Source of the DNA: Cladocopium goreaui
Lineage: Eukaryota > Sar > Dinophyceae > Suessiales > Symbiodiniaceae
Length of the DNA: 64,000 bases
Direction: 5' to 3'
NCBI GenBank assembly: GCA_947184155.2
Contig: CAMXCT020000256.1
Coordinates: 1 to 64,000, forward strand
Positions 17,001-45,628 of the stretch are shown here, piece by piece. The position numbers were made by a program, and so were the translations under genes. The notes under the pieces are model-generated. The model was not told the origin of the DNA. It was given only the letters and a program-made list of their open reading frames with translations, and ran no database searches. Position 1 is the stretch's first letter. Each line of letters begins with the position of its first letter.

Positions 17001-20000
17001 TAAATGGTGGTACCCCCAAATGGATGGTTTATAATGGAAAATCCGATAAAAACTGATGATTTGGGGGTAACCCCATTTCAGGAAACCTCCATATGAAGTT
17101 GGCTATAGATATTTCAAGTACATCACCATTTCTCCATTTTAGGATCCAAAATAAATTGAGGTCACAGCCCATAGCGAGTTGCGGGAAGCGACGCTCGGGC
17201 AGGACTGTCCTTGGCAGTGGCTTGGAGTTTTTTCAGCAGAGATGGGGCTTGGATGAAGGCTGTGAACCGATGTCCGTATATCCCACATACAACTGCTGGC
17301 TGATGGTGTCAAACATGATGTTTATTGGCATACACTATATTTGGGATAATGATCCCTCATGATTTTCGCACATTTTTCAGATTGGGGCATCAGATGGGGT
17401 TCTAAGTGATTTCTTATGGTTGTGATCCATTTGCAAACTGGGACGCACATCCGAATGGTGGTTGATGGTGCACACTAGGCCGCTTACAAACCCAATGTTG
17501 TAATACCAATTCCAAAATCCGTTCGGGGGTAAGGTTTTAAATTTAAGCATCACACACGTGATAAAATTGTGCAAATGGAATCTGATCTATGTACTATTTA
17601 TGTCTATTTATGGAATACTGCTATCTTAAGAAGTCCAATCGATCGCTCCTGTGTTTTGAAACTATTTTTTGGATCCATGTTGGGTATGGACCAAAAGTCT
17701 TTGGACCAAAAAATGTAAGGTTTTAGTACAAAACGAGGAACAAGTGGGTAGGGTTACCACAATTTTGAGATATAGCCATATGTGGGGTATAAACGCTCAA
17801 ACCTCCGCAAAAATGCGCATCATGAAGCTTCAAAGTGGGAATGTAAGCTAGTGAGGCTTGAAGGCGGGGATGCAAGCCCTAAATGATGATTAGAACTTAC
17901 ATGTTGTTCTGAAAATTGATACGGTCTTGCCGGCTTGCCAGACCCGAACAACATGGCGAGCTCGCCAATGCCGGACCCGAACCTTATGTCAAGTAGTACG
18001 TACGTCAGATAGGAATGCCAGATGAAATGTGAAATTATTTGCCAGTTAGATCGCCAGGTAGAATAGGTAGAATGCCAGATAGAATGTCACATAAAATGTC
18101 ACATAGTTCATGTTAGTTTAAATGTCAGATAAAATGTCATTTGGTGGGGGGTCACTTGAAGAAGTTTGATTTTTTCGCAACCTGCCAGGTGAGGTCTGTC
18201 AGTCATTGTCTGTCAGCCATTCAGTGACTCAAGCTTGAAGAGGTCAAACGACCTTTTCATGCCCCTTTGTTTCATGTTTTCATATGCCATGATTGGCAAT
18301 GATGTGGGTTTTCTGCCTTGGCACTCTGAACAATGTTGGTAAATCGCGACGCAGACTTTTTAAACGTTGAATTAGTGCTGGACAATGACAAGCGTGGCCA
18401 AAGAAAAAGTGCGTTCGAGCTTTTGCTGATGATGCTGGCCTTTCTATGTTGCACCGAGAAGACAATTCCCACAAAGGTGATCCAGATGAGGCATACTCAG
18501 TCTGCGGTCAGACATGCTCAGCATGCTTGGCTTTTGTCAGACTTGTAGAGAAACAGATTGATCCATTCCTTAAATGGAAATATTCTGGGTGCCACGCGGA
18601 CAGAAATAGATGAAATTTAATTGACACATCGAACAGAGGAGGGACAGGTTCTCTATGGCCTGACCCTAGCTTTTGCCATAGTGATCTCCATCGCCTCCAA
18701 ACAAGGCGGTGGAAGTGTAGCGTTTTGGTCAGGCCACAGTGGCCAACAGCCGGTGCCAAACCGGCAACGAGCAGAAGGCGCCTGGGGAGACATTGCAGCA
18801 CATCTCCATGGTTCCTTTCCCTTGGAAATGCTTGTCACACCAAGGTCCTTTTCAAACCTATGTCCACCAGGAAGACTGTAGATCCCAGTCCTGCGAGACT
18901 GCCGCGCAAGGTGATGTGTGGCAGCACCAGATGACGAGGCCTGAAGATTACTGGATAAAGTTCCACATGGCCAATGTCTGGTGCAGAGCCATGGTGTCCA
19001 GCGAAGATGAGAAATAACTAATTACCTTGTACGAAGCACAGTGGGCCCAATGCAGCTCCTGGAGCTCTCAGTCCACCCAATGCAGCTCCTGGAGTTCTAC
19101 CTGACCTCAACGCCTCTGGTGCTTGTTTGGCCGGTGGAGCCAGTGGAAGAGTTCCAAGGCCTCAGCCACCTCTTGGTGCTTCGAGACTTCATACAGCTCC
19201 TGGAGCTTCTGTGTCAGTACCCTGATCTGTCCTGGGATCCTATTATTGATCAATTCACTCAAGTCAAACGAGAACGTGACCAGTCGGCCAAGCAAGGACA
19301 CGACATCCCGGATCTCCTCCTCTTCCTCCTCTGCCAGCTTCTTGGCCACTCTGTCACGGTAGAATGCCAGAATGTCAAATGAATTGCCGGATAGAATGCC
19401 GGATTAAAAGGCCAGATACAATGTCAGTATAATTCAGTATTATACAGTATACATATTTTTTTAGTGTGTATATATATATATATTTCAAATAGAATGACAT
19501 GTATATTCAGATAGAATGCCCGATCAAATGTCAGATAGGACGCCGGATGAATTGCCAGAATGTTTGCCAGCGTATATGCCACGGCGGGAATCACTCGAAG
19601 AAGGTAATTAAATTGGTTTCCTTTTTTCAAATCCATCGCCCCATCATTATAACAACCATCCCAAGACATGGGACCTCAAATGTACAGACCCAGTACCAAA
19701 CCAGGGTTTTCGAGAGGCTGTTTGAACTGTGTGTTGGTTTGACAAAACCTGAAAAAACAATAGGCCACAGCTTTAAGCGCTTCTCAGCCCCACCGTGATG
19801 GATCTAACGACTGCAGGTACATGTACATCACAGCAGTCCACTGGTCACTGACCCAGTTCACGCCTGCCGCCATGGACGTAGTTTCTTGACCGCAGGGAGG
19901 GTTACCATCGATCCACACGATTGATGGGGTTTACCAAAACAAATTAAGATAAATCCTATGAGAGACGAACGGAGTTTCCTGTAGGCACATTTTTTCAGAA

Positions 20001-23000
20001 TATCAAAATGTTTTCCTTGTCAATCAGCATTCCTCAATGCCTAAAAATAGTTGCAAATGCCTTCCGGAACGAACTGAGTCCACGATTTAGCGTTTGTTCT
20101 CAAGGATATTGACCTTTGAGAAGGGCATCAATCTATCCATGTATGGAGGTAAATGATGTTGATCCAAAGAACCCGATTTCAACAACGACAATCGAAAACA
20201 TAATTGGATAACAACTACGTACCCTGTGGCATGGTCAATGCTGGGATGATCATTAAGCCTTGCAGGAGGGGCATACGAATCAACCAATCCCTAGCATGGA
20301 CTGGCACTGACGGGATTTTGGCAGCCAACATCCGGTGATGGCGCTTTGTTGGATGATGAAAAATATGAAAATACCGACTCACCAGCTAGGAAATCTACCT
20401 TCTTTGCTTAGGTCAAGTCTTCCATGACTGGAATTTCCACAAGGGTTTGGGCCACTGTACAATGATGGTTGATTTTTTGGAATGGTTTTGCTGTTCGGTT
20501 GAGTTTCATTTGTCGTTTTGAAAAGGTGAAACTAGCAACCGTGACCAGCTGATAAGTTGTTGCAAATTCTTCGATGAAATGACAACAGAATGGAACACGT
20601 CAGCAAAAAAAAACAGTTTTTGTTGGATCGGCATGTACTGGTTTTATTAGGTGTCAAACATAATTTTGTTTGCCAACATTCACAGCAATATGTTGCCCTT
20701 CCGGCCTTCTGTATAACAATGTACTCAGTGCTGAACTAATTGTCAAAACGAAAAGACACACAAATCACGATGGTTTTACCTCAGCGTTGACTCAACATGG
20801 TACATTTAGGTACTTCTCATCCAGCGATGATGATGATTTGTTTCCGCCGGCTGGATATTTCCCGGACGGAATTCCACGGTTTATTTCCCATCGAGAGAAC
20901 TAGAATGATGTTATTGGCCACATGATTGGCAATAACATGCAATAACGACTAGCTCATTGCACTGGGACGTATATAGTTATTCATAGTGATTGGACCCTAG
21001 AATTTCCTAATTATAACATATTCTAACTGGCCAAATATATATTTTTTTCGTCCAAAAGCTTCCGGAAAGTGACAGAACCTGAAAAATGACCACAGGTGGC
21101 GGTCACTTCTATTGAGCGCACGTTTTCGGTGGTCGTCACATTGGGAGGTGGCCGCATCGCTCGGAGAGGATGAGTCATGGGGAATCCCACCATGGAGTTG
21201 TGGATGAATTGTGGATGAATTGTGGATGATTTGGGTAGCCCTATTTTAGGAAATCACTTAGAATCATTAGGGTTTGAGGGTTTTGAGATTTTGGAATCAT
21301 GAATCAAAACACCGGGATCATCAAGAATCAGCGCCAGTGGGTAGAACCGTGATCTCCTCACCGATACCGTGGGCAGGTTTGATCGTTTTCAGTTTCTTCA
21401 TTGGAACCATCAACCAAGCCCTCGCGAAATTGAGGCGCGGAGCAGATTTTTCCCGGGAGCGTTGTTTTTCAACGACCCAGTATGTTGAGGTCACAAAAGT
21501 TCGTTCAGATCACAGAATGATGGAGGAAATCAATGGAAATCACCTGGTCAGAGAGCTTTTGTACGCATCCAACATCTTCCAACATCTTCGTTTCTTTCCA
21601 TTTGTGGGATCCCCATGTTTAGTCCGGTGAATTTGGAAGGAAAAGCCCCTCAATTAGTCATAATTAGTCTATATTGAGTCTGCAAGTTCAATAAAGATGC
21701 CATTCTTCCCACGTGCCCATTGGGTGGACAACGTTGGACTGATTCAGCCCACACTAAAAATCCAAGAGTCATGCGACTTCAAGAAGGTCTCATGTTTTTC
21801 CCTCCAAGGGTGGTATGATGCTTTAAGATGCAGAAAAAACTGATTTTCCCCAGCGATTTTCCAGGATCTTCTTCTTTGGAGGTTTTCTAAACTGGTGGTT
21901 TTCCCATTCATCATCCATTTACAGATTTTCCATTATTGGCAATCCGTTTGGAGAAAACCTTCATTTTTATATCACCATTAATAGGGATAAATCATGTTTT
22001 TTTTTATGATGGTTCATCCATGTAAATCCATTAAAACACCTCTAAAAAGCCTATAACAATAATGGTTAAATATTTTAGAAAATATGGGATAATATACTGT
22101 TAATAATGGTTAATATACTGTTAACATACTGTACTATTCTCAATCATTATTAACCTTTGTCCCCCCATTTTCTTGGGACCATCCGCGTTTTCGCCAGACA
22201 CGCCACGGCGCAAGAGCTGCAACAGAACAAGCTGGTGCGGCGCTACGTCTTCGAGAACGGTGCCGGATTCGTCGTCGAAAGGATGGGTAGAACAAAGAGG
22301 TTTTTTAGCCGAAAACACGCATGACATCTATGTTGTTACATATGTTAAATCTCATAAAACAACCAATATTAATCATAATATATATATATATATATAAATA
22401 ATGTATATTATTGTTATATATATATATATGTATATTATTGTAATATATATGTATTATTGTGTTATATATATAATAATATTATATTATAAACACATATATA
22501 TATATATATATATTTACACAATGTATATATATATATGTTATTATGTGTTAATGAACTACAGTATCATGTGGTGATGTTCTTGGGAAGAACAAGAAAGGTA
22601 TAAAAGAGGGCCCAGGGTAGAAACAGAAGCCATGGTGACTCTCGGGAGCGGGAGGTATTTCGGTGGGTCTGGCTACGGAGATTCTGACCTTCATCAAGCG
22701 TCGGGGCGTCGGCAAGGTGCCTTCAACTGGGGTATCCCGTGCCCGTGGTGTCCACTGCTGTTTTTCGGGATCGCCCATGGATTCCATGGATTTCAATAGA
22801 CCATATTTTTTCACCGAATTTGGCCATTGAGTGGTGTATGCATGCGTAACCATTCAAGTTTGGGGGAGACTTTGAGCCATAGCCGCATACTTCTACGAAC
22901 GAAAACCAGCTAGTTGATGCCTGAAAAAAACAAGCTGTTTCTTTATGGCCAAACCAGCCATAGAAAGAAAAAACAACTCCACTTTTGAATGATCTCTTGA

Positions 23001-26000
23001 TTCAAGCATCATGCATACACTTTCATGGCACCTCACCTCCGCAATTTTGCGGCTTTCAGTTGTGGAAGCTCAACTGGCTGAGATAGATGGGAATATGTCA
23101 AAAAAAACAAACATTCTGCTATACCAGCAGACTTTCGGGACAGATCTGGAGCCAACATCATGAAAAAATCTGGGGCATTTTCCCAACGGCAAGGTGGTAT
23201 TGACAAAACATAAGACTCATAAGAAGCGAAGACTCTACGTATTGGTGCCACTATCTTGGAATTCTAAGACGTCCAAATCCTCCCATAATTTGGAACTTCC
23301 CAGACGTGTGGAGGATTCCCAAGAAATTCCAGGCCCAAATGATCCCAGTAGAAAACCCATCGGTCAGCTGGGTCCATGCCTCGGCAGCAAGTGCAAGCCA
23401 TGTCGACCATGTCAGCGGAGCCTCTCTATGTGTCATCCCCAAGCTCGGTCGAATCCTTTCACAGCACGTCCAGCAGGAAGCATCAGGTGAGTTCATTGAC
23501 GTTTCTTGGTCGAACCGTGAAATATGTTGAAATGAAGTGAGGGGCTGAGGTGAATGTAGAAGGATAGTGATGGATGATAATTAAATCCTATGAACATCGC
23601 AGTCTTAAAAGAGAAAGAGATGGATGGATGGATGGATGGATGGATGGGTGGGTGGGTGGATGGATGGATGGATGATTGGATGGGTGGGTGGGTGGATGGA
23701 TGGATGGATGATTGGATGGGTGGGTGGGTGGATGGACGGATGCATGGATGGATAGATCCCCAATTCTATCAAGTTCATTAAATGTCTACCGATTGTTGCC
23801 ATTTCCAAACCCAGAAATCCCAATGGCTTTTTGATGACTCATTTACCCCTGGATTTCAGTGTGGATTGTCACATATTGTCAGGGGAAATGAGTCATCAAA
23901 AAGTCATACATTGTCATTATAGTATAGTCATTATAGTCAGTACAGTCAGTATCAGCATTATCACTATAAAAAACTTTCAGAAGAACGACGCTGACGAAAA
24001 GTCACAAAAAGTCAGGGCCTGTTGTTGGCCCTTCATCCCGCCGAAGGGACTCCGAAGGGACTCCCTTCGGGGACGTCAGGCTTTGTTGCAACGTGGTCTT
24101 GAGCATCACGGGAACTGCTGTGCTGGGCATCTCAGCCCAGATGAAAACCTTTGGATGGATCTTCACCCCCGTGGTTCTGGTGATCCTCGGTGAAGTTGAT
24201 GGTGAAGTTTTGAGCAGCATAAACTTAACATACGTATAAATGATCATAAATGTATATAAAGATTATGAAGACATCAAGATCAATGATGATAAATGGTAAT
24301 ATGTTTCTTGATATGTCTCAATAGCCAAAGTCTCTTGAGGTAGTTTAGCTGAAACATGTTGAAACCATATCTAGAATGATCATGAATTTATCGAATTGTA
24401 TATAATAATGCCCGATAGTGCCCGGCACGCGCCGGGGCGGAAGTTTCGAAAATAGGACATGACTAACCATCGTCACATCTCTTTGTTCAAGTGGCGTACA
24501 GAGAATTAACACTGCCTTATATATCTTCAGAAACTCAGTATGTTCATTTACGATCATTTACATCAATATGTTGATCTTCATTTCCCTTCCAAGTATTTAC
24601 ATCATTATTTAGAACCTTACTTCCGAAAAAATAGAACTTACTTCCGTTCAAGGTTCATGTTGTTTGGCCCTCAAATTAGATGTGTCATCTTCCTTAACAG
24701 CTCCCCCCGTCTCGCCGCGTCCCCAGGATAGGTGTCTTGGTCACCTCCGAAATGGTCCACCTGGTGTCCGAAACCAGCAACAAGTTGGAGAAGGATGGCA
24801 TCGACATTGTCTCCTACCAGGTGGGATGGAATGCCATGCCACAATGCGGCACATGCGGACTGCCGACTGATGCCCTTGTCATGTGAAGATATGTCCGACC
24901 TCAAAAAAGCTTTTTTGTACCGCGTTTTTCGTAGAAGTTCATGAACGGTTCATGGACATGGTGAATAAGCCTGGCCTGCACGGGTGCCAGGATTTCGCCG
25001 AAGCGGCGCTGGGCCAGACGGGCTGGTGGCTTTCTGCGGTGTCCAGCACCCTGTCGCTCTTTGGGATGATCTTTGGAGGACTGGGAGGGCTGGTAAGGGG
25101 ATCTGGTGGAAAATGCCTTGAGGGCGCTGGATGTTGCTACCCCTTAGGCTGTTCATTTGGGTACCATTGAAGATATTGAAGTAGCCTGGCATCACTTTTT
25201 CCTATTTTTTGGATCTTTTTGGGAGTAACGTAACCCCCAATCTTTAGTTATCCAAGGTGTTTCTTTTAATTCTGAACGTTATTTGTAAATTCTGCATGTT
25301 ACTCATTCCAAGTGACCTGCCATGTGGCCTGAGCAACGCGGCCCCAGCTGGTGATCTCTGCAGAACTAAGCCTTGGGAAAGACCTTGTTATATACTCCAG
25401 CCATGTACCTTCCGGTAATCCCCCGCTTCATTTAGGGAAATTTCTCAATTTCTTCAATTTGTAGATTCACTACCTATTGAAAAGCAAATGACATGTGTTG
25501 AATCTCCAAAAGATTTTATTCTTTTTATTGAACATCAGAACAACTTATCTAAACCCAAGAGCCATAAAGCCAATGGTTTCTTACAATGCTTTACGTCATG
25601 GGACGTTCAATTTAGATAAAGATAAACCGTTTTTGGCATCCCATTTCCGGTGTCCGATTCCTCGAAAGCGGCAGGACTCATCCTTGAGGCCCACAATTTG
25701 CAGCTTACGATGCCCATCTCTTGGCGCACAAGCAACCAACAGGGCGGGAAGGGGGGTGGAAGGATTTGAGCGATAAAAAATAGCATTGTTGATTGGTTGT
25801 AATAGTGGATTATACTAACATATATAACTATCCCATAGGATCCATAGTGCTGGTATATATGCTAACATTGGGGGTATATTTTTTTGGTATCCAGCCATGT
25901 TACCATATATGGCAGCACCATGAATCCTATGGCTATATAACTTCAATATAGTTATTTGGGGATCATTGCATCATTGGGGATCCATGAACTGGGAAACTCT

Positions 26001-29000
26001 GTGAACCAACCAGTTTTTTTGTTTAATGGGATGATAGTGGTATTTTTCATGGCCTTTTTTGGGGGGAGGTGGGCCTCGGGTTGTTGAATGACATTTGAAG
26101 TACCAACGCTGGTTGGTGTGAAGTCAGTGATCTGTTCAGAGTCTTCTTTCACAGTTGGTTTGGGTCTGGTAGTATGATGCAAACACTTGCAAACATGACA
26201 AACTGGTTGGTGGTTTCAAACATGTTTTATTTTCCATAATATATGGAATAATCATCCCAACTGACTCACCAACCAGCAAACATGTGTTTTTTTAATGGAG
26301 GATCCCCGCTGACAGTTTCGCGTTTGGATGCTCCCTAAAGCTGGGAGTTGCCAGCTGCCAGCCTGTGATTTCCTGACTTCCAAAATAGACCTTTCAGGAT
26401 ATACTGTAGTAAATATTGTTATGTGTTTAAGCCACTGTGGTGCTTGGGAGTGCTTGATTTCAAGAGTTCTGCACACGCTATTTTGAGGTCGTTCAAAGGG
26501 AATTTATTTTGCTATCAGATTCCTGATATGTATAATTATCATTAATTATCCTCTAATTATCTATATTATATATATACATATAATGTATAAATGAAGTGCA
26601 AAAATTTTAGTGTAGTCTCAGGTCCTGGCCGCTGGGAGGGAATGAGAAAGATGCGGGACGCAAATGGTGGGCGCTGCTATTGACATCCACCACCCTCTTC
26701 TACAGCCCCATTGGCCGATGGCATGGTGGGACGCGGGTTTTGTTCACCATGTTTTAATCAACTGTCCCTCTGGTTTTTCGTGATTCAATGGGATATTAAT
26801 GGATTTAATATGATTTAACGGGATATACCCTCTCGTAAACTAACATAACTATGGAAAACCACCATGTTTGAATGGGAAAATCAACTATTTCTATGGGCCA
26901 TGGCTTCTATAGCTACGTATGTTAGTCATTACCAGATAGGATGGCTGGATCGAGTGAAAACTCCAGTTGAGGCTTTGTGGATATGGGCAGCCTGCTTCAC
27001 AATTCTGCCTGGATTGGAATCGTGTTGACCCTCTTCTGTATCTTGGCAGACCAACTTTTGCCACGGTTCTTCGTAAATCTCGACAGCTTGGGTTTTCTTC
27101 TTGCCAGTTTGCCACATGATTCCCTTTCATGAGCTGGCTTTTGTTGGAAGCATGCGTCGGAGTCAATGACCTGACGCAAGGCTTTTTGGCACACCAGTCA
27201 GAACAGTGGTTGATAGATAGCTAGTGTATGCTAGTGTCAATTCTCCTCATTTTCCGTCCTGGATGTTTCGTCAGATGTCGGGCTCAAGACTGGGGTTGAA
27301 TCTTTTTCGTGGGTGATCTCCTGAAATGGTTATGGATGATCCCATTCTTCATAACGCCACCAAGCAGACAATGGGCTTGTACGACAATAGGTGTACCAAC
27401 ATTTTTTTCTGGTTCATCATCATTTTGTCCATTAACATTGCCAGAGTGGATCATTTTGGGGGAATACGATATACCCCATTTTTCAACTACACCCAAAATA
27501 CCAAAATCATATTGTTGGCTACATATCACCTTTCCATCTCTGTCAAATGGTGGGCTTAATCCCATTCTTGCTGGATAATTCACCCATGTTCAGACACTAT
27601 AGCAGCATAACATATCCCATCAAAGTCTATCATATTCCCAATAGAACCGTGGGTGTTCAATCAGTTTTTTTTCTAGGCGAAATCGCAAGTTCTTTTGTTC
27701 CAGGCATGGTCTGTGTCTACGGTGGAACCTTTGACCAATTCCAGTATGGGCTGGACTTTAACGACAGCTGCAGGCACTCAGCGGGCCTGACTCAAAATGT
27801 GGCTGCTTTGAAGCCTCAACAACAATAGAAAAGTGATGTTCGAGTCCAAAATACTGTATGGTGGCTAAATGACTGTTCTGTCATTTTTTTGGGTACTATA
27901 TATATAATATAAATATATATATATATATAAATATTACACTATATAAAGTTTATTCTTTACCATGAGTGAGGATTGTTTGAACATCGGGTTTTCAACGTCA
28001 AAACAATGATGATGATGATGATGATGGTGATTGGTATTTGATTGGTTATAATTTCTGACTAAAAACTGGCAATTTACATAGTCTTCCCCATGTTGGGAAA
28101 CTCATAACTCAAATGGATGAGCAAGTCAGAGGTTGCTCAGCGGGCCATGCGGAAGATTACCAGAGGTTGAGTCAATGTAGGCCACAAGTTGATAACTCTC
28201 TTGCAACACGGGAACGGAATAGTCCAAATTCCTCATCTGTAGAAGATTTTCCCACTAATAAAACAATAAACCATCCCCCAGTCATCACCATTCTTATAGT
28301 TGGGATTCAAACCGTTCCCAGTCATGGGTGGTTTATTGTTTTACCATGTTTTACCCACATTTTGATTGGGGTCCACCCGACAAGGGTGCCTGTGCTCCAA
28401 ATGAAGAGATCCAACCGTGGATCCATGGGGGAAAGATTTACCATCGAATATTTGGAAAATCATGGATGAAAACGATGTTTTCCATATAGTATTGAAACAA
28501 GATCTAAACATGATCTCTCAGTTGTCATCAGATATTGTTGAATCATAGTGATCTGCGGATGTTTCCCTTGTTTACCTTGTTTACCTTGTTTACCTTGTTT
28601 GCCTTGTTTGCCTTGGCACCTTTCGGGATGCCAGGGACGGAGAGGGCATGCCCTATCATTCCATTGGCATTAACGTCGCTGGGGATGGGCCTTTTGATTC
28701 CTTCCTCAACACCTTTTCAGTGCCTTGGTGAGAAAATCTGGCGGCGCTTGAAGCATTCAGAATAAGAATGGTAGTTGGTCATTCTAAGTTTTTTTTGAAG
28801 AAACCATAATATGGATACCTATTAGCCAGCCAATCTAAATGGAAATAGAGGTATTTTCAGGGCTCCAAACGCTTGGCACTCACTCTGCAATGCCTGGGTG
28901 TTTGGGTGTTCCTGTGAATTGGGAACCCGCCAAAAGATTGAATTCCTCGCTAAACCTGACACATTTTGATGGTTGGCGTCTTTTCATTTTTCTGGAAAAC

Positions 29001-32000
29001 CCTGCACCTGGCCGGCTGTTGCCACTTTCAAGAGTACAGACAGAATGGCCATGTGTGAATGGTTTACCTACTGACCTACTAAAGATTGTGATTTTCCACT
29101 TTGCAAACTGTCAAATAACCATAGGGCATCTACCCAACTTGATGATAAATCCACCACTCTCTAGAGTTGGTCTTTTCAGATTTTATCCATTTCAATCAGC
29201 ATATGGGGTGATGGGCCCTCCAAGTGACTGTCATATATTCTTTAGATAGTCGGCTCCACCATAGTTGGGAAAGTGATGAGGTATACATGGATTGAAGACA
29301 AGGGACCCCAACATCCGGCAGCTTATCATGATTTTTCTGCCAGAAATCGCATGTTTCGGGTTTACCACATTTTTTTGACAGGCCCGGCCATGATTCTCAC
29401 ATGTTTATCATTGCTTTTTGCAGAGGTTCTGTCACTATGGATGGTGCCGCCCAGTCACAAGCTAATTTATAACCCCAATGAACTACAGAGATATCATGAG
29501 ATATCTACTTTGAGCATCAACAACCAAGGTGGCGTAGTTTTACCAGCTTAGCCATCGTTTGGGGTCCCTTCCTGGAAGCTTCTGAGGTATTTTCATACAT
29601 AATGTACGCCTTTGCCATCGTGGTCACGCTCCCCACTCTGCGAAGCACAATGCGGGAGAAAGCGTCCTTGCCGCTTGGAAAGAAATGGAAGAAGGCTGAC
29701 AGTCAAAGTTGGCCTTGGCCAAAATCATCCCGAGAATTTTTGGGAAAAGTTCGGGTACCATGAACCAGCTCATAGATCAAGCCGGTCCCCGGGAGGCAGG
29801 ATATGTCGGGGACGAGTCTTCCACCAAAATGTGCTTTGATTATCTTTGGTCCTTCAGTTTGGTTTTGAGAAAATGCTGGAGGATAACAAAACTCTTAAAT
29901 CCCTTTGGTGTTAAAGGCCATGCATATTTTACACATGCTTTACAGAGTGTTTTTTTCTGATGCAGTCAATAATTCAATATATCACTCTCGCGTTCATCAA
30001 ACCCGACACCATCAAGAGCAAGGGTGAACTGAGACTCTTTATGTGGCTCTTGTGTTTTTCCTGTTTGCCAAGAAAACGATGAACTAACCATGGCTACCCA
30101 ACTATCCAAGGTACATCCAGCTATGGTGAAATTATACATATGTAGACATATTTAAGTGTGTATGATAATAGTTTGATTTTACATGTATAATATACAAACT
30201 GATAAGTGATATGCATGTAGGTATTGAAGTGTACAAAACATCATGTTTCCTGTATGTATGGTAGAGAAGACAATATTTATGCGTATACTACACACATCAT
30301 AGCATTTGACATACACATACATGTATATGTTGTTTTAATAGTGAAAGTATTTGCTTAGTGTTTGTGTTTATGCAATATGCATCTATAAATGTATCCATGT
30401 AATGCATATATCTAATTTTTGAGTTAGTAGGTATTCACATTCATGGGTTAAATGCCAACATTACATGCAGACATATCTATGTAGCATTAGATATCATTAA
30501 ATACATTCAATTCATTTCACATACCCTCTGGTTACTGCTTATTTAGCATAGCTATGAACAAAGAACCGTTTTTGATAGGTAAAACATCTACAAATGAGCC
30601 ATAGCTTCCAGTTCGTAAGCTGGTAAATTACCGGGGGGGGTACATACACTTCTACATTTATCACATCATATCATATCATATCGTATTGTATCATGTCATA
30701 TCATATCATTTCATATCAGTTCATACCATTTCATTTCAGTTCATATCATTTCATTTCAGTTCATATCATTTCATTTCATAACATTTCATTTCATATCATT
30801 TCATATCTATCATATAAATTCATATCACTTATCATATCATTTATCATCATGTCATATCTCCCAGGATCATTGTCACCCATGGTCCAAGAATTTTCCCCCC
30901 GTATTTTCCGCATGGCTCAAGGACCTGGACGTGCGTGGTGGCTTTCCTTATTGTGGCATTGGAGTTCCTGGTGACTTGGGTTTGGGCGAAAAAAAACACA
31001 GTGGAAAAAAATGGAAGAACCGTTTTTTTTAATGGACTTTCATGGGGAATTAATATGATTTAATGGGATTAGATGGGGAACACTTGTTTTTTTGATTTTA
31101 CCGTGATATCATTTTCATTGATAATAGGGATATGGGTTAATTGGATATTTGGGGATAATACTAAATGGCTTTGGCACCTGCTTTGTCATCAGTTTCCCTA
31201 CTAGAACTGCCATGGGGAAGACATCATTTTCAGACACGCCCCTAGGCAGTAGAAAGGGTGGATGGGGGATGCAATGGGGCATACTGCGGCATACTTCATG
31301 GGATATATTGGGGATGTCGATAGATTTTAGAGTGTTTTTTCGGGTATAGAATCCAAGGAACAATTATGATAGTATGATACGGGTGAATCGAACAATTGGG
31401 AGTTACATCCAAAATACCGCCATTCCAAGAGAGGAAACTGATCATAAACCGATTTCAAAAAGTTCGAGGGATAATACGTTCCAACAATCCATGCAATGAA
31501 AACATGTTCTCAGAGACTGAACTCATGGCCCAAATATGGTGAGGTTTACTCGGGTAGCTTCCAAAAAATTGGATCGATTGATAGATTTGATAGATTTCAG
31601 TGGGATATGACTCAGAGAAACCAATTAGCAGGTTTGCGGAGGAAGCAGGGTTACAGACTGTTTTTGTGGCATATTCGTGATTTGGTCATGGAGGTGACGA
31701 TGTGTTTTGACATTTGAAACCACCTACCCGGCAGCTTGTATTCACTCTTCAAAGAAAGGGTGTCGAAACGACCTCGTCAATGCCAAAAAAGCCCAGATCA
31801 GCCTTATCAAAACATTCTTGCCAGTGACACCATTAAAAAAACAAGCCACGTACCGACATACCGAATACCAAATTATATTTTGGAACAATATCGACTTGCT
31901 GGATCGAATTCCGAGAACTAAAATGCAAGTGAGCTGGCGTTTGATCGACTTTCTTAGTCTACTAGAAAGGAAACCCTAATGGTTCATTTGGCAGACTGAA

Positions 32001-35000
32001 TTGCAGCTGCCATTGTTGTTTGCGTTAGGGAACTTTACTGATGAGGAACTGCACAACTGCCATTCACATGCAAATCCACCCCCAGCCCCGCTTCTAGTTC
32101 GTTCGACCAAATGACCAGTAAGAAGCCAATGCCGGGGGTATCAAACCAACCACATTGGAGATATAGTGGAATATGATGGGAGATATAGAGTAAATTACAG
32201 TAATGGGTATACATGGAATGGCATTTGCTTTTCCAGACATGCGGGATACCCAAATTAACCATTTCAATGGAAAATGTGAGGATTCACCATGAGAATAGTT
32301 GGGGTTCTATCATCAAAATCCGAAGGCAGGTGGCATGTCGTGTTGACAGAAATGAGGGCACATACTCTATACCACCATATATGCTACTTTTTTTGGTCGG
32401 ATATCCAAGACAAACCCTGATATACATTGATATACGGGATAAGATTAGGTTTCCTCATAGTAGCAGCTTGGTACTCACATGAACAGATGTTAGCTTGGTC
32501 ACTGGGTGGCTAATCCTGATGTTTTGAGGTGATCATGTTGGCTTCGTACTGGGTCTTCGGAAATCTGGGTCCTGAGAATATCATCGACGGCCTCAAGCAT
32601 CGACGAGACCAGTGACTTCAGCATGTCTGGTGGGACTTGTCCAGTGGGTGACTTACTAAGTAAACCTTTGGTTTTTGCTCAGCAACTAAGCAAAGATCCT
32701 TGTGCAGGGTATCTACGATTGGCCATGTGGGATAAGATCGTCATACTCCCTGGCAGGAAACATAGCAGACATAGCAAGTGGAACTCCTTCGGGGATGATC
32801 TTTTTAAATGGGACAATCATCTATTGGATTCGTGGATCTACCATGATCTACCTGGAAGATGTTTTCCAACTGACAAGCAGACCGCGGCCCAGCCAAGCTT
32901 CCAAACCAAAATAAAACCAAAGAAGCTCAGTTTTAGTTTCCCAAAAATATCGTTCAATATGTTCAATCATTACTTCCCCCAGTATTAAATACCCACGGTA
33001 GGCTCCCTGATGTGCTATTTTCCTCTATTTTCGGGGGTCCTTTATTGGGGGTATGTTTAAGAATGTTTAAGATTAGAGGGCTGGGAGTACCGAATGTGAC
33101 TTTGCCCTCAGTTGTTGAGCTATGGCAGCTATAAACGGGACTGAGCTATCGACTGCGGCTGTGGGAGTTTAACTGCATAGCTATGAAAAAACACCATTTC
33201 AACAGGTCCAATAGGTACCCTCTGGTTATTTAACATAGCCATGGAAAATGGCCCATTTATAGATGATTTAATTACCTATTAAATATTGTGATTTTCCATG
33301 GCTATGTTAAATAATCAGAGGGTAAGTCAACTATAAATTGGCATTTTCTTGCAGCTATATTGGTGTACTAGAGTCGAGGGTAGAACTGCGGCCCAATTCT
33401 CAACAGTTGCATCGGCGTCACTGGCGCATGCGTGATCCAGCACGCCCCGTTCACCGAAACTTCCCATGCGTTTTCCATTGTGTTCCTTTATTTATATAAA
33501 TATGTTCATTTACATAATCATAATTGTGATATAATGATTAACAACAATTAATTACATTAATATGTGTTCTTGAAATTTCTTAATAATCTTAATGACAATA
33601 ATGATAATAACAATAGTATACAATAGTTCTATAACATTCTATAAGAAGATTCTAGATATACAATCGTGGTAGGGCCAGGCTGCGGGTTCCCACAGGTTTC
33701 CTGGATGGTGGGCCACGGTGAATCCTTGGAACACTGGGACGCCCACTGGCTTCGCAGATGCCTTGGGATGGGGATTCTTGGTGAATCGGTGAGTTTCGAC
33801 CAGGTGTTTACCTGGTGAAAGATGTGGGAAAGCCATGGAAAGCCCACGAATCGAGATGTGCCAGCCGTTAAGAAACAATCATCTACAAATGGTGGGAGAA
33901 CCCACATCTATGCTAGTAAAAACGGGAGGGTAGGTTAGTTTACTCATCAATCTTTTCATCATCAGCCCATGGATAACCATGTTACATGTTACATATTCCA
34001 ATTGTCAGCTGATAAAAATGGTTATAGCTGCAAGAAAAAAACATATCCCAATCAACAACTGTTTATTCCACGTCCATCAATCAAACAATATGTTAATCCC
34101 AATTATGAATGTTGGTCGCACCATTGAAAACAATCTTAAAGAATCCAATCCAAAAGAAATTGCTGATAGTGTAGCAAACACAGCAATAGAGCATGCACAA
34201 TTATCACAATTTACCTTGTGGGATCCTTTTTGGTGGGATTGTAAACCATACCCTCAAAATCATTGGTAGTACCCTCTGGTAAACCAACAGTTTGCTATTG
34301 AAAACGGCCATAGAAATAGTGGATTTCCCCATTAAAAATGGCGATTTTCCATAGATATGTGTACGTTTACCAGAGGGTAATTCGGTGATCATAAGAGAAT
34401 AGTTAGCACGTTTTACATCACCCCGAAACGCACATCATGACCACCTAATATCGCCAATATGCCCCGCACAACAATGGCAAGAAAAATAAATGTTGGGTGG
34501 CATTCTTCTATTGGGTTACCAGGGTTACTACCTGAATACCACTGGCAAACCCGTAGAATCAATAGTAAACCCAAATATTCAACCCAACAGTAACATTCCC
34601 AATCACAAAATGGGGAGTTTGTTAAAATTGGGGATCCCCAAGTTTCCGTGGGTTTCAATACTAAGTCATGGTCATCCATGACTTGGATGATTTGGCGCTA
34701 CCCCCATGACGTAGGAAACCTCCAAATACCCCCCAGTAATAGTACTATAGTAAACCCAATGAAATGTTCAACCCAACAGTAACATACCAATATCATACCA
34801 ATCACTACCAATCACAAAAAATATAACTATAACCCCTGACCGTTCAGGACTCACGCTTCACCTGCTGTGCTCCGATGCCATCTATGTGCCCGTGACGGTG
34901 GTGGCCACTGAAGCCCTGCTGCCTCGGAGCTGGGTCGCCCGCAGATCTGTCAGCGCCATGGTTGAAGTGTCGCACCATTTTTTGGGGCCTGAAAAACATG

Positions 35001-38000
35001 GATCAATCCATATGAATCCACTTTTTTCTTGGAAAACTGGAGAAATTCCAAACTTAAATGATCTGAAAAAATCATGTGAATAATCCATGTGAATAATCCA
35101 TGTTGAACCATGAAAACAGCTATAGTATCCTGAACCCTTTTGTTCCCTCCTGGCCCTTTTGGCGGTTTACCGGTTTCGTGATGGTCACGTCCAAGGCATT
35201 ACGGTGCGCGTCTTCGTGGCGCTGGTGCGACTCATTGTGGCCGCGCAGGTGCAGGACTTCATAAAGATGACAAATCTCACCTCGGCCGCCTGTGTGCCTT
35301 GGAAAAACCCATGGAAAAACCATGGTGGTGAGATAAAAATGTTGGTTTTTCTTGAGAAATGACGAGGTTTGTTGTTGTTCTATTTTGTAATTAAGATTAA
35401 CATGGATTATATCGAATATGCATGGAATATACAGTAGATTTTTTTTGGGTGGCGTGGCAAGATATTGGAAACAGCTTTGCCCTGGCATCGCCATGCATCC
35501 AGGTGACGATGAACAACATCATTCTGCCAGTGCTGTGTTTTTACGTCGTTGGGCCCCATCGTTTGAATGGCACCGGCGTCGGCTTTCGGTTCCAACTGAG
35601 ACGGCTGGTGCATGCGATGATCTTGGCCTTTGGCGTTTTCAGCAGCTGGGTTTTTCTGAGGAAATGATGGGAATGGATTTTTTTTATTATATGACTGGGG
35701 GGAATAAACATCCAGCTATACCAGGGTTTTGACCCATAACCATATATGATGCAAGTTGAAATGGATGCACTACTGCGAACTGGTAGATCAAAAACATTAA
35801 CCAAAAAAAACTTTCTAGCCACTTACAGTATCGCAGCGGATGCAGAATACCATGAAAACTGATTGAACCGGTCAAATCGCAATCTTTGTTTGGTCTTGAG
35901 ACTTTAGAGATCCGTTCACCGTTGATGGTAAAGTCCTTGATAAGATCATCGGCTTCAGGCATTTCACTCTTGGTGCCATGTTTTTTTTCAATCCAAATTG
36001 TGGTTGCCAAATCTTAATTTTGGTAACATCCAACATCTCTGGTGGGAACATCCAAGCCCTTGCTGGTGAAATTCCAATTTCTACGATAGAATCATCACTT
36101 TGAATTGTAAAATCAAATTTTGGGTGGCAAGATCCACAGGGGGTCAGAATCCCTGGACCGAAAGAAGCAGACGGTTTTTGAGATCCTTGAGATCCTTGAG
36201 ATCCTAGCTCCAAATGTTGATTAAATCATCAGCTAGAGGGCTAGCATCCACCTTTCTGGCGCTTGATTGTTTGGGCTGCTTGCTTAGCAACATCTTGACA
36301 TCTTAATTTTGATGGTCAAATTGCAAATGATTTTTCTGTTGCTTAAACCCCAATCTTGGCTGATTAAATCCAAAATCTGGCGGGCAAACAGTTACATGCA
36401 ATCTTGTTGGTTGGAAAAGCGCGATCTTAGCGGGTTAAGTACAATTTTTTACTGGTAAAATTCTCCATTTGTGCAAGTGAAATGCTGTAACTAAATGTAG
36501 CTAACATCCACCAAAACCAAAATTGTCATTTTTACTTGTAAAGAAGTATAGAATCTTTATTTTAATATAGTTATTTTTCATGGTCTAATTGCGAGTTTTG
36601 CTGCTCAAATCACCATCTCTTGTTGGTCAACTGGGCATTTTCCGGGCCGCGAAGGCATGGTCTTCGGCACCATCTCGGCGCTGCGTGACCTGCACGCTGC
36701 AAGCAGCGCGCCGCTCACGGGCAGCTTTCCACGGCCAGGGTGCTCACAGGAGAGGCCATTGAAGTACCCTCTGGTTATGTCAAAATAGCTATGGAAAATG
36801 GCCATTTATAGTCAGTTTTCCCATTAAAAATGGTGATTTTCCATAGTTATGTTAGTTTACCAGAGGGTAATGATGGAAAGTAATTACTGGTTGGTGGTTT
36901 CAAACAATTTCAAACATGTTTTATGTTCCATAATATATGGGATAATCCTTCCCATTGACTAATATTTTTCGAGTAATTGTGATACTTATCTGGTTGGTGG
37001 TTTGGAACATGGCTGGATTATGACTTTCCATATATTGGGAATTTCATCATCCCAACTGACGAAGTCATATTTTCAGAGGGCTTGAAACCACCAACCAGTT
37101 GTGATACTAATAATTGGGTAATCTGGTGATCCACTTTAGGCCATGCTCACAGTAATGAATCTTAGTAAAGTATCTTAATGATGCATATTGCCCATAGTAA
37201 AGCAATAGTAAATCACCCCCCAATTAATTTACTATGGCACGATATTACATAATAATTCTTATGGGTTGTACAAACCATCAACTTATATATACGAGTGGTT
37301 GATTATTGCTTTGCTAACATTACCAATTTGTACATTTAAAAAATATTGTTTTGGCGATATGTTTTGTAATTACAGTCATCATAGTAAATGGTAATCGATC
37401 TTTGATTTATTTTTGGGGAAACATATTGTAGTTTACATTGATTATATAATGAACTTGAAGAAGTTAGTTAGATGTAGCCTTGGAACAAAGCCGATGAATA
37501 TGGAGGGGTACATAACCCAAGTCGCGGGCCAGGAAATCCAGCAGGTTTTACATGTTAAAGAGTCATGTTTTACTGCTAGCTGAAGCATACCATTTTCTAG
37601 CACATTGGAAAGAAATAGTGTGTATGTCTAGTGTGTTGTGTGTTAGTTCTATAGATGGCATGCATACATTTCCAGTATGGACGCAAATTCATTTTCATTT
37701 ATTTCTAGGCATAGTGATTATTCCACATCATACATATTCATCCACATACACGAGGACTAGACCCCTTGCCAGAGTGGTATGGAATCCGTTTCGAATTGCC
37801 GGAGTGGCACTATGGATCCTTTCAGGTTGCCCCTGATTATGACATCCCTCAAGGAGTGCAGAGAGGCCTATTGCGCTTTGCATCTGCGAGAACCACATTG
37901 TGCCAGATGAGAAAAGGTCGTCGCAATGCGCAGTTCCAGGATTTCAGCGCGTGTCCATGAAAAGGAATTATCAGTCCCAAGAACTTTGATGACGATCCAT

Positions 38001-41000
38001 TGTTTATCCGCCAGAATGGTCATGGTCATGTTGAACTTCAAGGCAGAACACAGCGCAAAAAAGCGTCGTGTTTGCATCATCTTTTTGGATCTATGGGTAT
38101 GTCAAGGTCACAAGGTCTCCCGGTATCCCCAAATCCACCGGTTTTTTCGGATGTTTTTCGAATGGGCAATTTTTTTGGTGTCCCCCATTTCTGGAGAAAG
38201 CCATTTTTGTTCAGGGTTTGTGGTCTCAAGAACAAAACGGACTCGCGTTTGGGTCTGGTGCGATTGAATCTACTGTAATAGGAAGGATTCCCACAGACTT
38301 ATCTTATCTACTCTTGATGCTTTGCTCCTCAATCACGTCCGGCCCGAAAGATCTTGATTTTGGATGTGTCACCCTTCCATTTCCTGGTTTGAAGCCGCGA
38401 ATTTGAGGCTTATTTCGTTCCACTCACAAAGGTGCAGCGTAGAAGATAACGGTTCCTATATATGTTCCTATTCAGAATCATTGACATACCAGCCCTATGG
38501 TACATTCCTCAGCCCATCAGCTTCCATGGAGGCGCAGAGCAAGTTGGTGTCTGGTGATATCAAAATCTTGAAGCTACTCGGAGAACTTGCTGGGTGTTTC
38601 ACAGGGATCATCCGAAGATTTTACCACTGCGAGTGACTTTGCACGGTAGTTTTTTGATTTTTTTTCTGAGTGGTTTGTCGCTTTTTCCGAAAGCTCCTGG
38701 TTGGGAAGCCGAATTCTAATTCTTCCCGGGTTTGGAACCTCAAGTTTTGGGTGAAGCAAAAATGGGTGGTTTGGAAAATCATTGTCCGCAAATGGCCATG
38801 TGAGGCCGTTCATTTTCAGACAAACCCAATTGTTTTATTTCAGGGCGAACCAATAAATTATGATTGTTATTTACCGTTATTTACCCAGAGTACCACCCCA
38901 CACACGCTACGTATCAGGGTCCTGCCAAGAGCACTGCGTGACAACCTTCTGGAGGAGGTGGGGGCTTTAGTGGAGGTGATTTGATTTGTTTGATTAGGGG
39001 ATCAACACCTAAGATGCGATACTTGGATCATCATGAAACATCTGCCGGCGATTTGGAGGTGAACAAAACTGAGGATTCTGTTCCCCGTACGGATCCTGTT
39101 TTGACCAAGAACAACTTCCAACGGCTTTGAACCTGTTTGGGATGGCTTGTGAAGCAGCTTGTGAAATCGTATGATTGTCTTTGGTGAAGTCAGAGCAAAA
39201 AAGCCTCTTCCCAGAATTGTTTTTTTTAGTATGTTTCAGGTGACATGTTCCAAAAAAAAACTGTATATTTTTGCGGTAAATCCATGGAATCCCATGGAAT
39301 CCCATGGAATCCCAACCTGGCAAGGACAAATCCCCCGAAGGATTGTGAAAGCCACCAGTGTGCTAAACCCAATGCTGCTCATACACCATACCCTAAAGTT
39401 AGCCCAAAACTCACCACATAAAGGCACGAATAAAGGAATACTGCCAATTGGATACTCAGTGATATAAGCAATTAATCCTATTATTATCATATTATCATAT
39501 TATCATATTATCATATTATCATATTATCACTTATCAATCGATCTGAATAGTCATTCAAACAGCAATGATTTCAAAAACCTACCAAAAACACCCACGGTAA
39601 TTTCCCCGCTGTTCGATGGCTTAAAAGTGAGTAAACCATCTATCATAACATGGCTAATCCCTTGATACCCCGCGTAGCAGGTTAGCAAGTTTACTTCAAT
39701 GATGTATCCAGTTCACCCAACCTGTCATCTTCAAAAGCCGCCAAACGAGTCGGTGCCAGGCTTCGCGGCTTCCCTAATATTGGACTATGACAATCCCCCA
39801 TCAAACATGGCCCTTTCTCCTTGCCCTCTGGTAAACAAACATGGAAAATCACAATTTTCGATAGGTAAATCAATTATAAATGGCAATCTTCAATAGCAAA
39901 CTGTTGGTTTACCAGAGGGTAACAGACATGAAGATCCTGGAGCCAGGTGAGCATGCCTGTGCTGACGAGCCATCCGTTGTTGCACTACCTCTCCCTGACG
40001 GGGTACTCCGAACTGGCAGCATGGCGCGCGCTGGGATGGCGCTACGGAATACCATGGGCACCTCCAAGGGTCGAAACAACATGTCTGGCATAGCTTAGAA
40101 ATAGCTTAGAATATCCCAACAACTCATAGAGATTGCATTTGTTTGTGAACTTGTTTTTTGGGTTTCCCACATGAACATGAACATAAACCATACCCCATTG
40201 AGATCCATGATTTCGCAAGCGAGAAGGGCCCCTTAGTTATAAGTCTGTCCATAACGCGATCTTACCATAGATAGATATCTTCGATTATATCCGCATATAT
40301 CCACCACAAATCAATGTAAGTGATAGAAACATATAGAAAACGCGAAGTTCAAATCAAGTATAATTAACTTATCCATCATGAAATCCATGATGAATCCCCA
40401 GTCTTGGGGTTAAATCCTAGTTGTCCACCCTTCAGAACTGAGGCGCGGCTGTGCCACAAGGCGCGGCATCCAGAATTTGAAGTTCCTATTCATCTGTGGG
40501 ATTCACCCACCATCCCCCAAGTCACCACCATTAATGGATTGGACAATGTATAATGTTGTAACATGTTGTAACCATTCCCCAAATGGTCGAAGGAAGTTTA
40601 GAAGTCAAGAAGGAAGTTTAGAAGTCAAACTTCCGACAATATGGACAGATGAAAAGCAGAGGTGGAGCAGAAGAATAGAGAAGAGAAGGGAAGAAGAGAG
40701 AAGATCAGAGAAGAGAAAGTCTCAGAAGAAAGAAGATCCAAGTGCGCGAAAAGGTAGGAAAGTCGCGAAACACTGTGTTTTTCCAAAGATTTGTGGCTCC
40801 GGAGGGTCGAAAAGTAGGCTCGCTAAAGCGGCGGGTGGCGCGAAGCACATTTCCAAGTCAAAATGCATAAGGCACCACATGCTCGGACCACGTTTGGAAA
40901 TTGATATGTCGAAAAAGTGCACGCCGTTGTGGCGCGAAGCACGTTTCCAAGTCAAAATGCACAAACCACACCAGCTCCGGACCACTTTTGGAATCTGAGA

Positions 41001-44000: not shown

Positions 44001-45628
44001 CGAGTTCCGTGGCTGAACAAACGCCGTTTTGTCCACTTCGGAGTTTTTCTCTGCACAGGCCATCAAGGAGTCGAGTGTCGTGCATGGAGAGGAGATTTTC
44101 CATCCCAACTCCGCGGCAGATAGGCAGGGCATTGCAGGGCATTGCAGTTGATGTACCCGGCCCGTGCCATGAAATGGTGATTTAATCGTGATCAATGGGA
44201 TTTAAGTGGGAAATTCATGGTGAATCATTGAATCATTGACCATTGATATAACCTGGTTATTTAACAGAGCTATGGAGAATGGCACATTGAAATAAATTAT
44301 GTATCATTTACCTAGCCATAAAAAGTTGATTTTCCATAGCTATTTTGTTAAAACACCAGGGCTACATCATCTTCATGAATCGGATCATGACCGTCACCTC
44401 ACCGGAAGGATGGTTGACACGGAGAATCATCGAACTAAATTGAATGGTAAAATTTCCAGCTAGCCACGTTTAATAGCCACACCTCATACATGGTTCCAAA
44501 TATGTGTAAATCCCCAACGAAACCATGACCACAATGGACTTTTGAACGGGGTGTTGAATATGAACGGGGGATGTATGTCCGAGCATTGGGGATACTTTGC
44601 GGATCCTTATGAGCCAAGCATTTTTGATATCCATATCAATGGGATCGGTATCTTGGGTTCGACCAGAAACAGACTATTGATATCTATTGGTATTTAAAAG
44701 CTGCCAAAATGGCGGTAAACAAACTGTTGACACTGTTGACCAGATATATGATATGTGGATATGATAGTTGTTATGCTTTTGGTTGATTATGGGGGTTGAA
44801 GTACCCAATATGGGACATATATGTATATATATACAGTATATTTATTATACATATATATATAACCAGCCATTTGATGGGGATGGAATCAGCTTCATACTGT
44901 TACAGCAGCCAGATCCGGCATGACATATTTTCGGGGAGATCCTCCCCTATCTGCGGCAACCTATTTGAAGGAACATGATGTTCTCCACCATGATGGAAAC
45001 TCAGATGCCCCATTTCAGACAAACTGAAGATCTCTATTTAATATAAAGAAGAACTAGGTAACAGAATACCAAAACGCTGGCTATGTTCTTCTTGGGCGTT
45101 GGATGGACAAGTACACCAGAAAAAATGGGGGAATCGCCAGGATTCGACCGACTTCTGCATTTGAATTTGCTAAAAAACCATAGGTTTTTACACTGGAAAA
45201 AAGGTGATTTGATGGGGTCAAAAACACATCCCGGCCGAATGCCAGGTTTATCTTCCTGATGAATGGCAGGTGCGGAAGCTGCGTTTGAGGGAAGGTCCAA
45301 GTCTTGATGATACATTTCAGATAGACTGATAGACTTTGCATATCTTGAATCCATCTGAATCCTCTTGCTGAAGAGTTTGCTATGGAAAATGGCCATGGAA
45401 ATAGATGAGTTCTGATTGTCCATAGCTCCGGTCGCCCGAGGGCTTCCATTTTTCCATTATCCATAACCTCTGAGATTCACCAATGCCACCATCCAAGTAG
45501 CCATGACTGGGGCCCAATGATTTATCGCTCTGTTTTTTGGATGGTTTATTCCTGGGTTTACCTCATTACATATTTGCATGCACATATATATATATAATTA
45601 TATATATATGTATATGTATATGTATATA

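What the first reader, a model, noticed from the sequence alone, without database searches (positions are those of the whole stretch)
22717..38531. A complete amino-acid transporter gene nested, same strand, inside one intron of a channel gene
C-linker exons at 22655-22716 and 38532-38593 join in phase and continue the family pattern (FIKRRGVGK then [16 protein letters not shown]). Every AAAP exon from 23376 to 36788 lies between them. A same-strand nested gene must be expressed from the same transcript or from its own start, and then separated by splicing or by spliced-leader trans-splicing. Such trans-splicing is known in dinoflagellates.
Basis: partly seen in the sequence, partly recalled or inferred. 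Interest (0 to 1): 0.88.

Follow-up and report, generated by a model that had tools for sequence, protein, structure and literature searches.

The report
Transporter gene inside a channel-gene intron
In a dinoflagellate alga, a gene for an amino-acid transporter appears to sit, on the same strand, inside one long intron of an ion-channel gene; the arrangement looks real but is of a kind already reported for thousands of genes in another dinoflagellate.

Summary
The arrangement is very probably real, though shown from sequence only. S5, pore, S6 and the start of the C-linker of a cyclic-nucleotide-gated/EAG-like channel lie upstream of 22716; the rest of the C-linker and the start of the cyclic-nucleotide-binding domain lie downstream of about 38.52 kb; an AAAP (Aa_trans) transporter lies between, same strand. 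Searches of the own 1.17 Gb genome found no second close copy of either gene. Two paralogs have an intron at or near the same place, about 0.45 and 0.2 kb long; a third, without an intron there, aligns ungapped across the joint. The genome carries 172 exact dinoflagellate spliced-leader sequences. Weak points: no RNA evidence; exons picked by eye; an automatic spliced alignment missed the first downstream exon; the splice point is uncertain by a few codons; the transporter is not shown to be complete (one exon unclear, stop codon inside a MITE-like repeat). Nested genes are already reported for the dinoflagellate Polarella glacialis: 8.4% and 6.5% of predicted genes in two isolates, structure reported as confirmed by full-length transcripts (PMC7245778, passages). 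A good new example of a known arrangement.

The parts
8233..8298 (+). host channel, probable S4 segment ([22 protein letters not shown]); exon ends not fixed, low confidence
   Evidence: read by eye; the SthK alignments start in this segment (query residue 8 or 9)
15343..15399 (+). host channel, S5 ([19 protein letters not shown]); exon ends not fixed
   Evidence: aligned with SthK
19818..19877 (+). host channel, pore helix exon ([20 protein letters not shown])
   Evidence: similar pore exons in paralogs
21096..21147 (+). host channel, start of S6 ([17 protein letters not shown]), GT donor
   Evidence: join to the next exon read by eye (the script used a wrong frame for this pair)
21377..21434 (+). 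host channel, S6 ([20 protein letters not shown]), GC donor
   Evidence: (rank 6 of 1720)
22198..22259 (+). host channel, C-linker exon 1 ([20 protein letters not shown]), GT donor
   Evidence: (rank 1 of 1720)
22655..22716 (+). host channel, C-linker exon 2 ([21 protein letters not shown]), last exon before the nested gene
   Evidence: (paralog L026); weak alone (rank 895 of 1720)
22717..38531 (+). 15.8 kb intron of the channel gene holding the transporter (left edge may lie at 22698-22717, right edge at 38512-38537)
   Evidence: intron in paralogs 449 bp (L026) and about 0.2 kb (L049, ends not fixed)
23376..23486 (+). AAAP exon 1, ATG at 23376, GT donor
   Evidence: not part of the genome query
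24012..24189 (+). AAAP exon 2 (TM1), GT donor
24732..24820 (+). AAAP exon 3, GT donor
24991..25084 (+). AAAP exon 4; right end uncertain (GA donor)
25675..25743 (+). AAAP exon 5; right end uncertain
26622..26713 (+). AAAP exon 6; ends uncertain
29552..29677 (+). AAAP exon 7 (TM5-like); ends uncertain
33696..33757 (+). candidate AAAP exon 8 ([18 protein letters not shown]); a guess
   Evidence: Aa_trans 39.0 bits with it and with revised neighbouring joins, 32.4 before, so its own share is not isolated
34848..34952 (+). AAAP exon 9; right end uncertain
35196..35295 (+). AAAP exon 10; ends uncertain
35503..35644 (+). AAAP exon 11; right end uncertain
36655..36788 (+). AAAP last exon as read; its last 7 codons and stop lie inside a MITE-like repeat
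38532..38593 (+). host channel, C-linker exon 3 ([20 protein letters not shown]), first exon after the nested gene
   Evidence: best of 66,077 windows; rank 15 of 1720; not picked
38930..38957 (+). host channel, candidate small C-linker exon (ALRDNLLEE); low confidence
   Evidence: by eye; no match of its own
39947..40027 (+). host channel, end of C-linker and start of cyclic-nucleotide-binding domain ([27 protein letters not shown])
   Evidence: weak alone (rank 1415 of 1720); motif recognised from memory
44059..44123 (+). host channel, cyclic-nucleotide-binding-domain exon ([21 protein letters not shown])
   Evidence: (rank 5 of 1720)

Best explanation
A cyclic-nucleotide-gated/EAG-type channel gene of a dinoflagellate has, in its C-linker, an intron of about 15.8 kb (phase 0 if the joint is 22716/38532). 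Inside it, on the same strand, lies a separate multi-exon AAAP amino-acid transporter gene. Shown from sequence: order, strand, a joint that keeps the frame, no second close copy of either gene found, and an intron at or near the same place in paralogs. Inferred: the long intron is removed by ordinary cis-splicing to make channel mRNA, while the transporter mRNA is made separately, from its own start or from the shared primary transcript, and receives the spliced leader at an AG upstream of the ATG at 23376 (for example 23366-23367). The intron existed first, short as in the paralogs, and the transporter segment came to lie in it; without the 13.4 kb transporter span it would be about 2.4 kb.
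For: The chain resembles SthK (E 9.7e-4, S4 to C-linker), hERG (1.8e-3) and CNGA1 (0.0078) in the PDB; these matches end before the joint, and one weak match crosses it (7w5z, E 0.097). Of 33 genome matches of the channel chain 8 are its own exons on this contig, in order; the other 25 (E 0.002 to 4.9) are weaker. Of 11 matches of the AAAP chain 10 lie in order at C256:24012-36704; the other has E 3.1. L026 has an intron there too: with the donor chosen by analogy (1792/2242) it is phase 0, 449 bp, after the same 20 residues. L049 has its next C-linker exon about 0.2 kb on. L051, without an intron there, aligns ungapped over 54 positions, 13 identical by my count. L010 and L012 align across with small gaps. 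Joined halves 42.6 bits against 27.5 and 9.2 apart; 0 of 1000 shuffled downstream halves reach it. Block at 38547 best of 66,077 windows. Aa_trans cut-off passed. DinoSL 172 exact copies, 0 reversed.
Against: No transcript data. Exons were picked by eye. The automatic spliced alignment picked S6, C-linker 1-2 and the 44059 exon at a low intron penalty, along with several spurious micro-exons, but not the exons at 38532 and 39947; at higher penalties it kept fewer. In a first block scan two minus-strand windows beat the 38532 exon and one, low in complexity, beat the 22655 exon; the better scan was made after that one. Single exons are weak alone: ranks 1, 5, 6, 15, 895, 1415 of 1720. Of four paralog frames aligned, L016 and L019 do not support the continuation. 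No Pfam channel family. An in-frame ATG at 38526 would allow the downstream half to start on its own.
Confidence: 0.8

Rival explanations
1. The channel gene has been split in two by the transporter: the downstream half is a separate gene starting at its own ATG (38526, MEAQSKL...), or one or both halves are dead.
For: An in-frame ATG GAG directly precedes the 38532 exon. A 15.8 kb intron is much longer than the other 7 introns of the chain from the pore on, 0.2-4.0 kb (approximate ends); upstream, about 7 kb separate the candidate S4 and S5.
Against: No other close copy of either half was found in the genome (the search scores best candidates only). Half a C-linker plus binding domain has no obvious use alone. 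Nested genes in long introns are common in Polarella.
Confidence: 0.11
2. Assembly artefact: a transporter-bearing piece was wrongly placed inside the channel gene.
For: Only one assembly was seen, and no reads could be examined.
Against: No N in the window. The stretches 22717-23375 and 36790-38531 share only an inverted 11-base match (shortest detectable 11), so there is no obvious cause of a misjoin there. Both genes run in one orientation on a 279 kb contig.
Confidence: 0.04
3. The channel exons splice into the transporter, giving a fused or alternative protein.
For: An AG (TAG|AAA, exon start 23352) precedes the ATG at 23376 in frame with a phase-0 donor at 22716 (by eye).
Against: Frame agreement alone has odds of one in three. 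The fused protein would lose the cyclic-nucleotide-binding domain. The paralogs show the normal continuation.
Confidence: 0.03

Closest known systems
Nested genes of the dinoflagellate Polarella glacialis (Stephens et al. 2020, PMC7245778; passages read)
   Same: Protein-coding genes inside introns of multi-exon genes; in 71.0% and 74.9% of cases one nested gene per host; nested structure reported as confirmed by full-length transcripts. The paper's EvidenceModeler step allowed genes within introns over 10 kb; this intron is 15.8 kb.
   Different: Another species. The worked example there has 15 nested genes, including light-harvesting ones, in an alanine-tRNA ligase gene; here a single multi-exon transporter lies in a channel gene. 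The strand of nested genes relative to the host was not given in the passages read.
Nested protein-coding genes of animals (human: 158 of 373 reliably annotated nested genes are protein-coding, quoted from Yu et al. in PMC3192792; passages read)
   Same: Independent gene in an intron; the paper reports effects of such genes on host splicing and polyadenylation.
   Different: Here the dinoflagellate spliced leader could free the nested mRNA by trans-splicing (inference).

Membership tests
nested gene (intron-contained, same strand) | all coding exons of the inner gene lie between two consecutive exons of one outer gene | tested here: met
   order and strand, phase; that the two outer exons are consecutive rests on paralogs; no RNA
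nested gene (intron-contained, same strand) | both genes expressed as separate mRNAs | not testable with these tools
   no transcript data
nested gene (intron-contained, same strand) | inner gene complete | tested here: inconclusive
   possible start present; one exon guessed; stop inside a MITE-like repeat
AAAP / Aa_trans (PF01490) transporter | Pfam gathering score | tested here: met
   32.4 and 39.0 bits against 25.6; two stretches, the best covering about a quarter of the profile; no PDB match
CNG/HCN/EAG-type channel | S5-pore-S6 followed by C-linker and cyclic-nucleotide-binding domain | tested here: met
   PDB similarity S4 to C-linker and paralog profile to the start of the binding domain; S1-S3 and the end of the binding domain not traced; no Pfam family above cut-off
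dinoflagellate nuclear genome | spliced-leader sequence CCGTAGCCATTTTGGCTCAAG in the genome | tested here: met
   172 exact places, 0 in the reversed control; none in the window with up to 3 mismatches
retroposed gene copy | relic spliced leader and loss of introns | tested here: not met
   the transporter is read as 11 to 12 exons and no relic leader lies in the window

The most novel reading that the evidence does not exclude
Channel and transporter come from one primary transcript, and the cell chooses between them: cis-splicing across 15.8 kb gives the channel, while spliced-leader trans-splicing inside that intron gives the transporter, so the two membrane proteins are made in opposition.
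Probability: 0.07. Interest if true: 0.6.

Novelty: new member of a known kind. Interest (0 to 1): 0.22.

Why it matters
It is a case in which a same-strand nested gene and its host can be told apart, with no second close copy of either found, and with paralogs whose matching intron is short. That makes it a convenient locus for asking how dinoflagellates release a nested mRNA: own promoter, or spliced-leader trans-splicing out of the host transcript. The arrangement itself is already known in dinoflagellates.

Tried and rejected
Pfam scan of two of the three + frames of 14-29 kb with stops as X: no families, insensitive to exons of about 20 codons; the third frame and the rest of the window were not scanned so. 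Rfam on 22-40 kb at gathering scores: none; tRNA on the window: none. Repeats shared by the two flanks of the transporter: one inverted 11-base match. The exon G+C test is circular, since exons were found partly by G+C, and used wrong ends near 38936, 39950 and 44060; not used as evidence, and its intron lengths are approximate. Automatic spliced alignment: did not recover the downstream C-linker exon. First block scan: control windows scored higher; a second scan with four closer paralog blocks was made after seeing that. Scripts that failed: missing file, rerun; missing output, rerun. In one search the S6 pair was tested in a wrong frame. In one search, L052 was left out of the alignment, L048 was read in a wrong frame, and L053 looks unrelated. 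Literature on nesting in dinoflagellates, in an open-access library only: 4 papers, three judged by title; none; none; one, the same paper; only PMC7245778 was found to report it. Two other searches on nested genes: none; 6 listed, one opened. (introners): 13 listed, one of them, PMC11453091, opened for passages. A retrocopy origin was rejected because the transporter has introns. The organism's name was not determined.
Full report
What is there. The window is the first 64 kb of a 279 kb contig (C256) of a 1.166 Gb assembly. That genome holds the dinoflagellate spliced-leader sequence exactly 172 times and its reversed control 0 times, so it is taken as a dinoflagellate. Of four copies read, one is followed by GT as in a leader gene; the other three are not and look like relics.

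Host gene. Reading the translations gives, on the + strand and in order, a probable S4 (8233), S5 (15343), pore (19818), S6 (21096 and 21377), C-linker (22198 and 22655), then, after 15.8 kb, the rest of the C-linker (38532, and a candidate small exon at 38930), its end with the start of the cyclic-nucleotide-binding domain (39947), and more of that domain (44059). The motifs were recognised from memory. The joined chain resembles SthK (E 9.7e-4, S4 to C-linker), hERG and CNGA1 in the PDB; these matches end before the joint, and one weak match crosses it (7w5z, E 0.097). Pfam gave no channel family for it. In the own genome the chain from the pore on has 33 matches: 8 are its own exons (the small exon at 38930 has none), on this contig and in order; the other 25, E 0.002 to 4.9, are weaker and some may be chance. 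The tool scores only its best candidates, so this is 'no other close copy found'.

Nested gene. Between them lie the exons of an AAAP transporter, first ATG at 23376. The joined exons pass Pfam's Aa_trans cut-off (32.4 bits, then 39.0 with revised joins and a candidate exon at 33.7 kb; cut-off 25.6), the best stretch covering about a quarter of the profile. No PDB chain matched. Of 11 genome matches 10 are these exons, in order, and the eleventh has E 3.1 (exon 1 and the candidate exon 8 were not in the query), so no recent duplicate was found. It is not a retrocopy: it has introns.

Is the joint right? Three lines say yes. First, paralogs. In L026 (C4557) the matching exon ends after the same 20 residues, in phase 0, if the donor at 1792 is used (chosen by analogy among several), and the next exon begins AKTVKIGDVKLLKRLS where this gene has [16 protein letters not shown]; that intron is 449 bp. 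In L049 (C1577) the next C-linker exon (VPAEDIKLLTLLS) comes about 0.2 kb on; its ends were not fixed. In L051 (C168) the frame runs through, and aligns ungapped over 54 positions, 13 identical by my count. L010 and L012, also open through this stretch, align across with small gaps; L016 and L019, aligned in the same call, do not support the continuation. Second, a profile built from L010, L012, L051 and L026 gives 27.5 bits for the upstream half, 9.2 for the downstream half and 42.6 joined; with the downstream half shuffled the best of 1000 is 36.4. Third, with four paralog C-linker blocks the place at 38547 scores 20.0, best of 66,077 open windows of both strands (next 16.5); in 180,101 windows of other loci, overlapping loci counted more than once and 19 loci of this contig left out, only copies of the four members and L051 score higher.

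Results against. The exons were picked by eye, and the shuffles do not model that. The scan was made after a first scan with other members, in which two minus-strand windows outscored the 38532 exon and one, low in complexity, outscored the 22655 exon. Single exons are weak alone: ranks 1, 5, 6, 15, 895 and 1415 of 1720 hits. An automatic spliced alignment with three distant paralogs scored 81.4 on this strand and 66.0 on the other at a low intron penalty; it chose S6, both upstream C-linker exons and the 44059 exon, with several spurious micro-exons, but not the exons at 38532 and 39947. At penalty 15 it kept S6, the first C-linker exon and 44059; at 20 and 25 only 44059. The exact splice point is open: of 42 possible joins four score above 22716/38532, the best being 22699/38521 with 57.0 against 51.0. 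I keep 22716/38532 because L026 can be read with the same boundary, but cannot prove it.

Completeness. The transporter's stop codon (36786-36788) and last seven codons fall inside a repeat of about 105 bp with inverted ends TACCCTCTGGT...ACCAGAGGGTA (36765-36869), of which the window holds several copies (12 end matches with up to one mismatch, 0.96 expected). So either the repeat supplies the stop, or the true last exon lies elsewhere. Several donors as read are GC or GA; a review gives 25-74% for such boundaries in Symbiodiniaceae (PMC11453091, passages read).

How it probably works. Shown: order, strand, frame across the joint, no second close copy found, an intron at or near this place in paralogs. 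Inferred: cis-splicing removes 15.8 kb to give channel mRNA; the transporter mRNA is made separately and receives the spliced leader at an acceptor upstream of 23376. Whether it has its own start or is cut from the host transcript is unknown. The same review says that polycistronic expression of tandem repeats appears rare, which slightly favours an own start. Without the 13.4 kb transporter span the intron would be about 2.4 kb. Nothing at the flanks shows how the transporter arrived.

What is known. Polarella glacialis has 4898 (8.4%) and 3359 (6.5%) predicted genes nested in introns of multi-exon genes in two isolates, most hosts holding one; the structure is reported as confirmed by full-length transcripts (PMC7245778, passages read). 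The searches, in an open-access library, turned up no other dinoflagellate report; three of the four papers were judged by title. The present case is therefore a good new example of a known arrangement, and its interest is modest.

Noticed in passing
window 33216-33324, 34270-34379, 36765-36869, 39822-39921; further ends at 15436, 26826, 30522, 49193: A family of about 105 bp MITE- or introner-like repeats with inverted ends TACCCTCTGGT/ACCAGAGGGTA; one copy holds the transporter's stop codon and one ends 25 bases before a channel exon.
   Followed up: partly
G000, 172 places; L042-L045 read: Exact spliced-leader copies; of four read, one is followed by GT (leader-gene-like) and three look like relic leaders.
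   Followed up: partly
window 9157-11564 and 41891-42347: Long simple-repeat tracts that create large spurious open frames.
   Followed up: no
window 40722-41350: A stretch of repeated short frames ([12 protein letters not shown]...) downstream of the channel exon at 39947.
   Followed up: no
L010 (C242), L012 (C221), L051 (C168): Channel paralogs whose frame is open through S6 and/or C-linker without introns, in a genome where other paralogs are split by introns; possibly retroposed copies.
   Followed up: no
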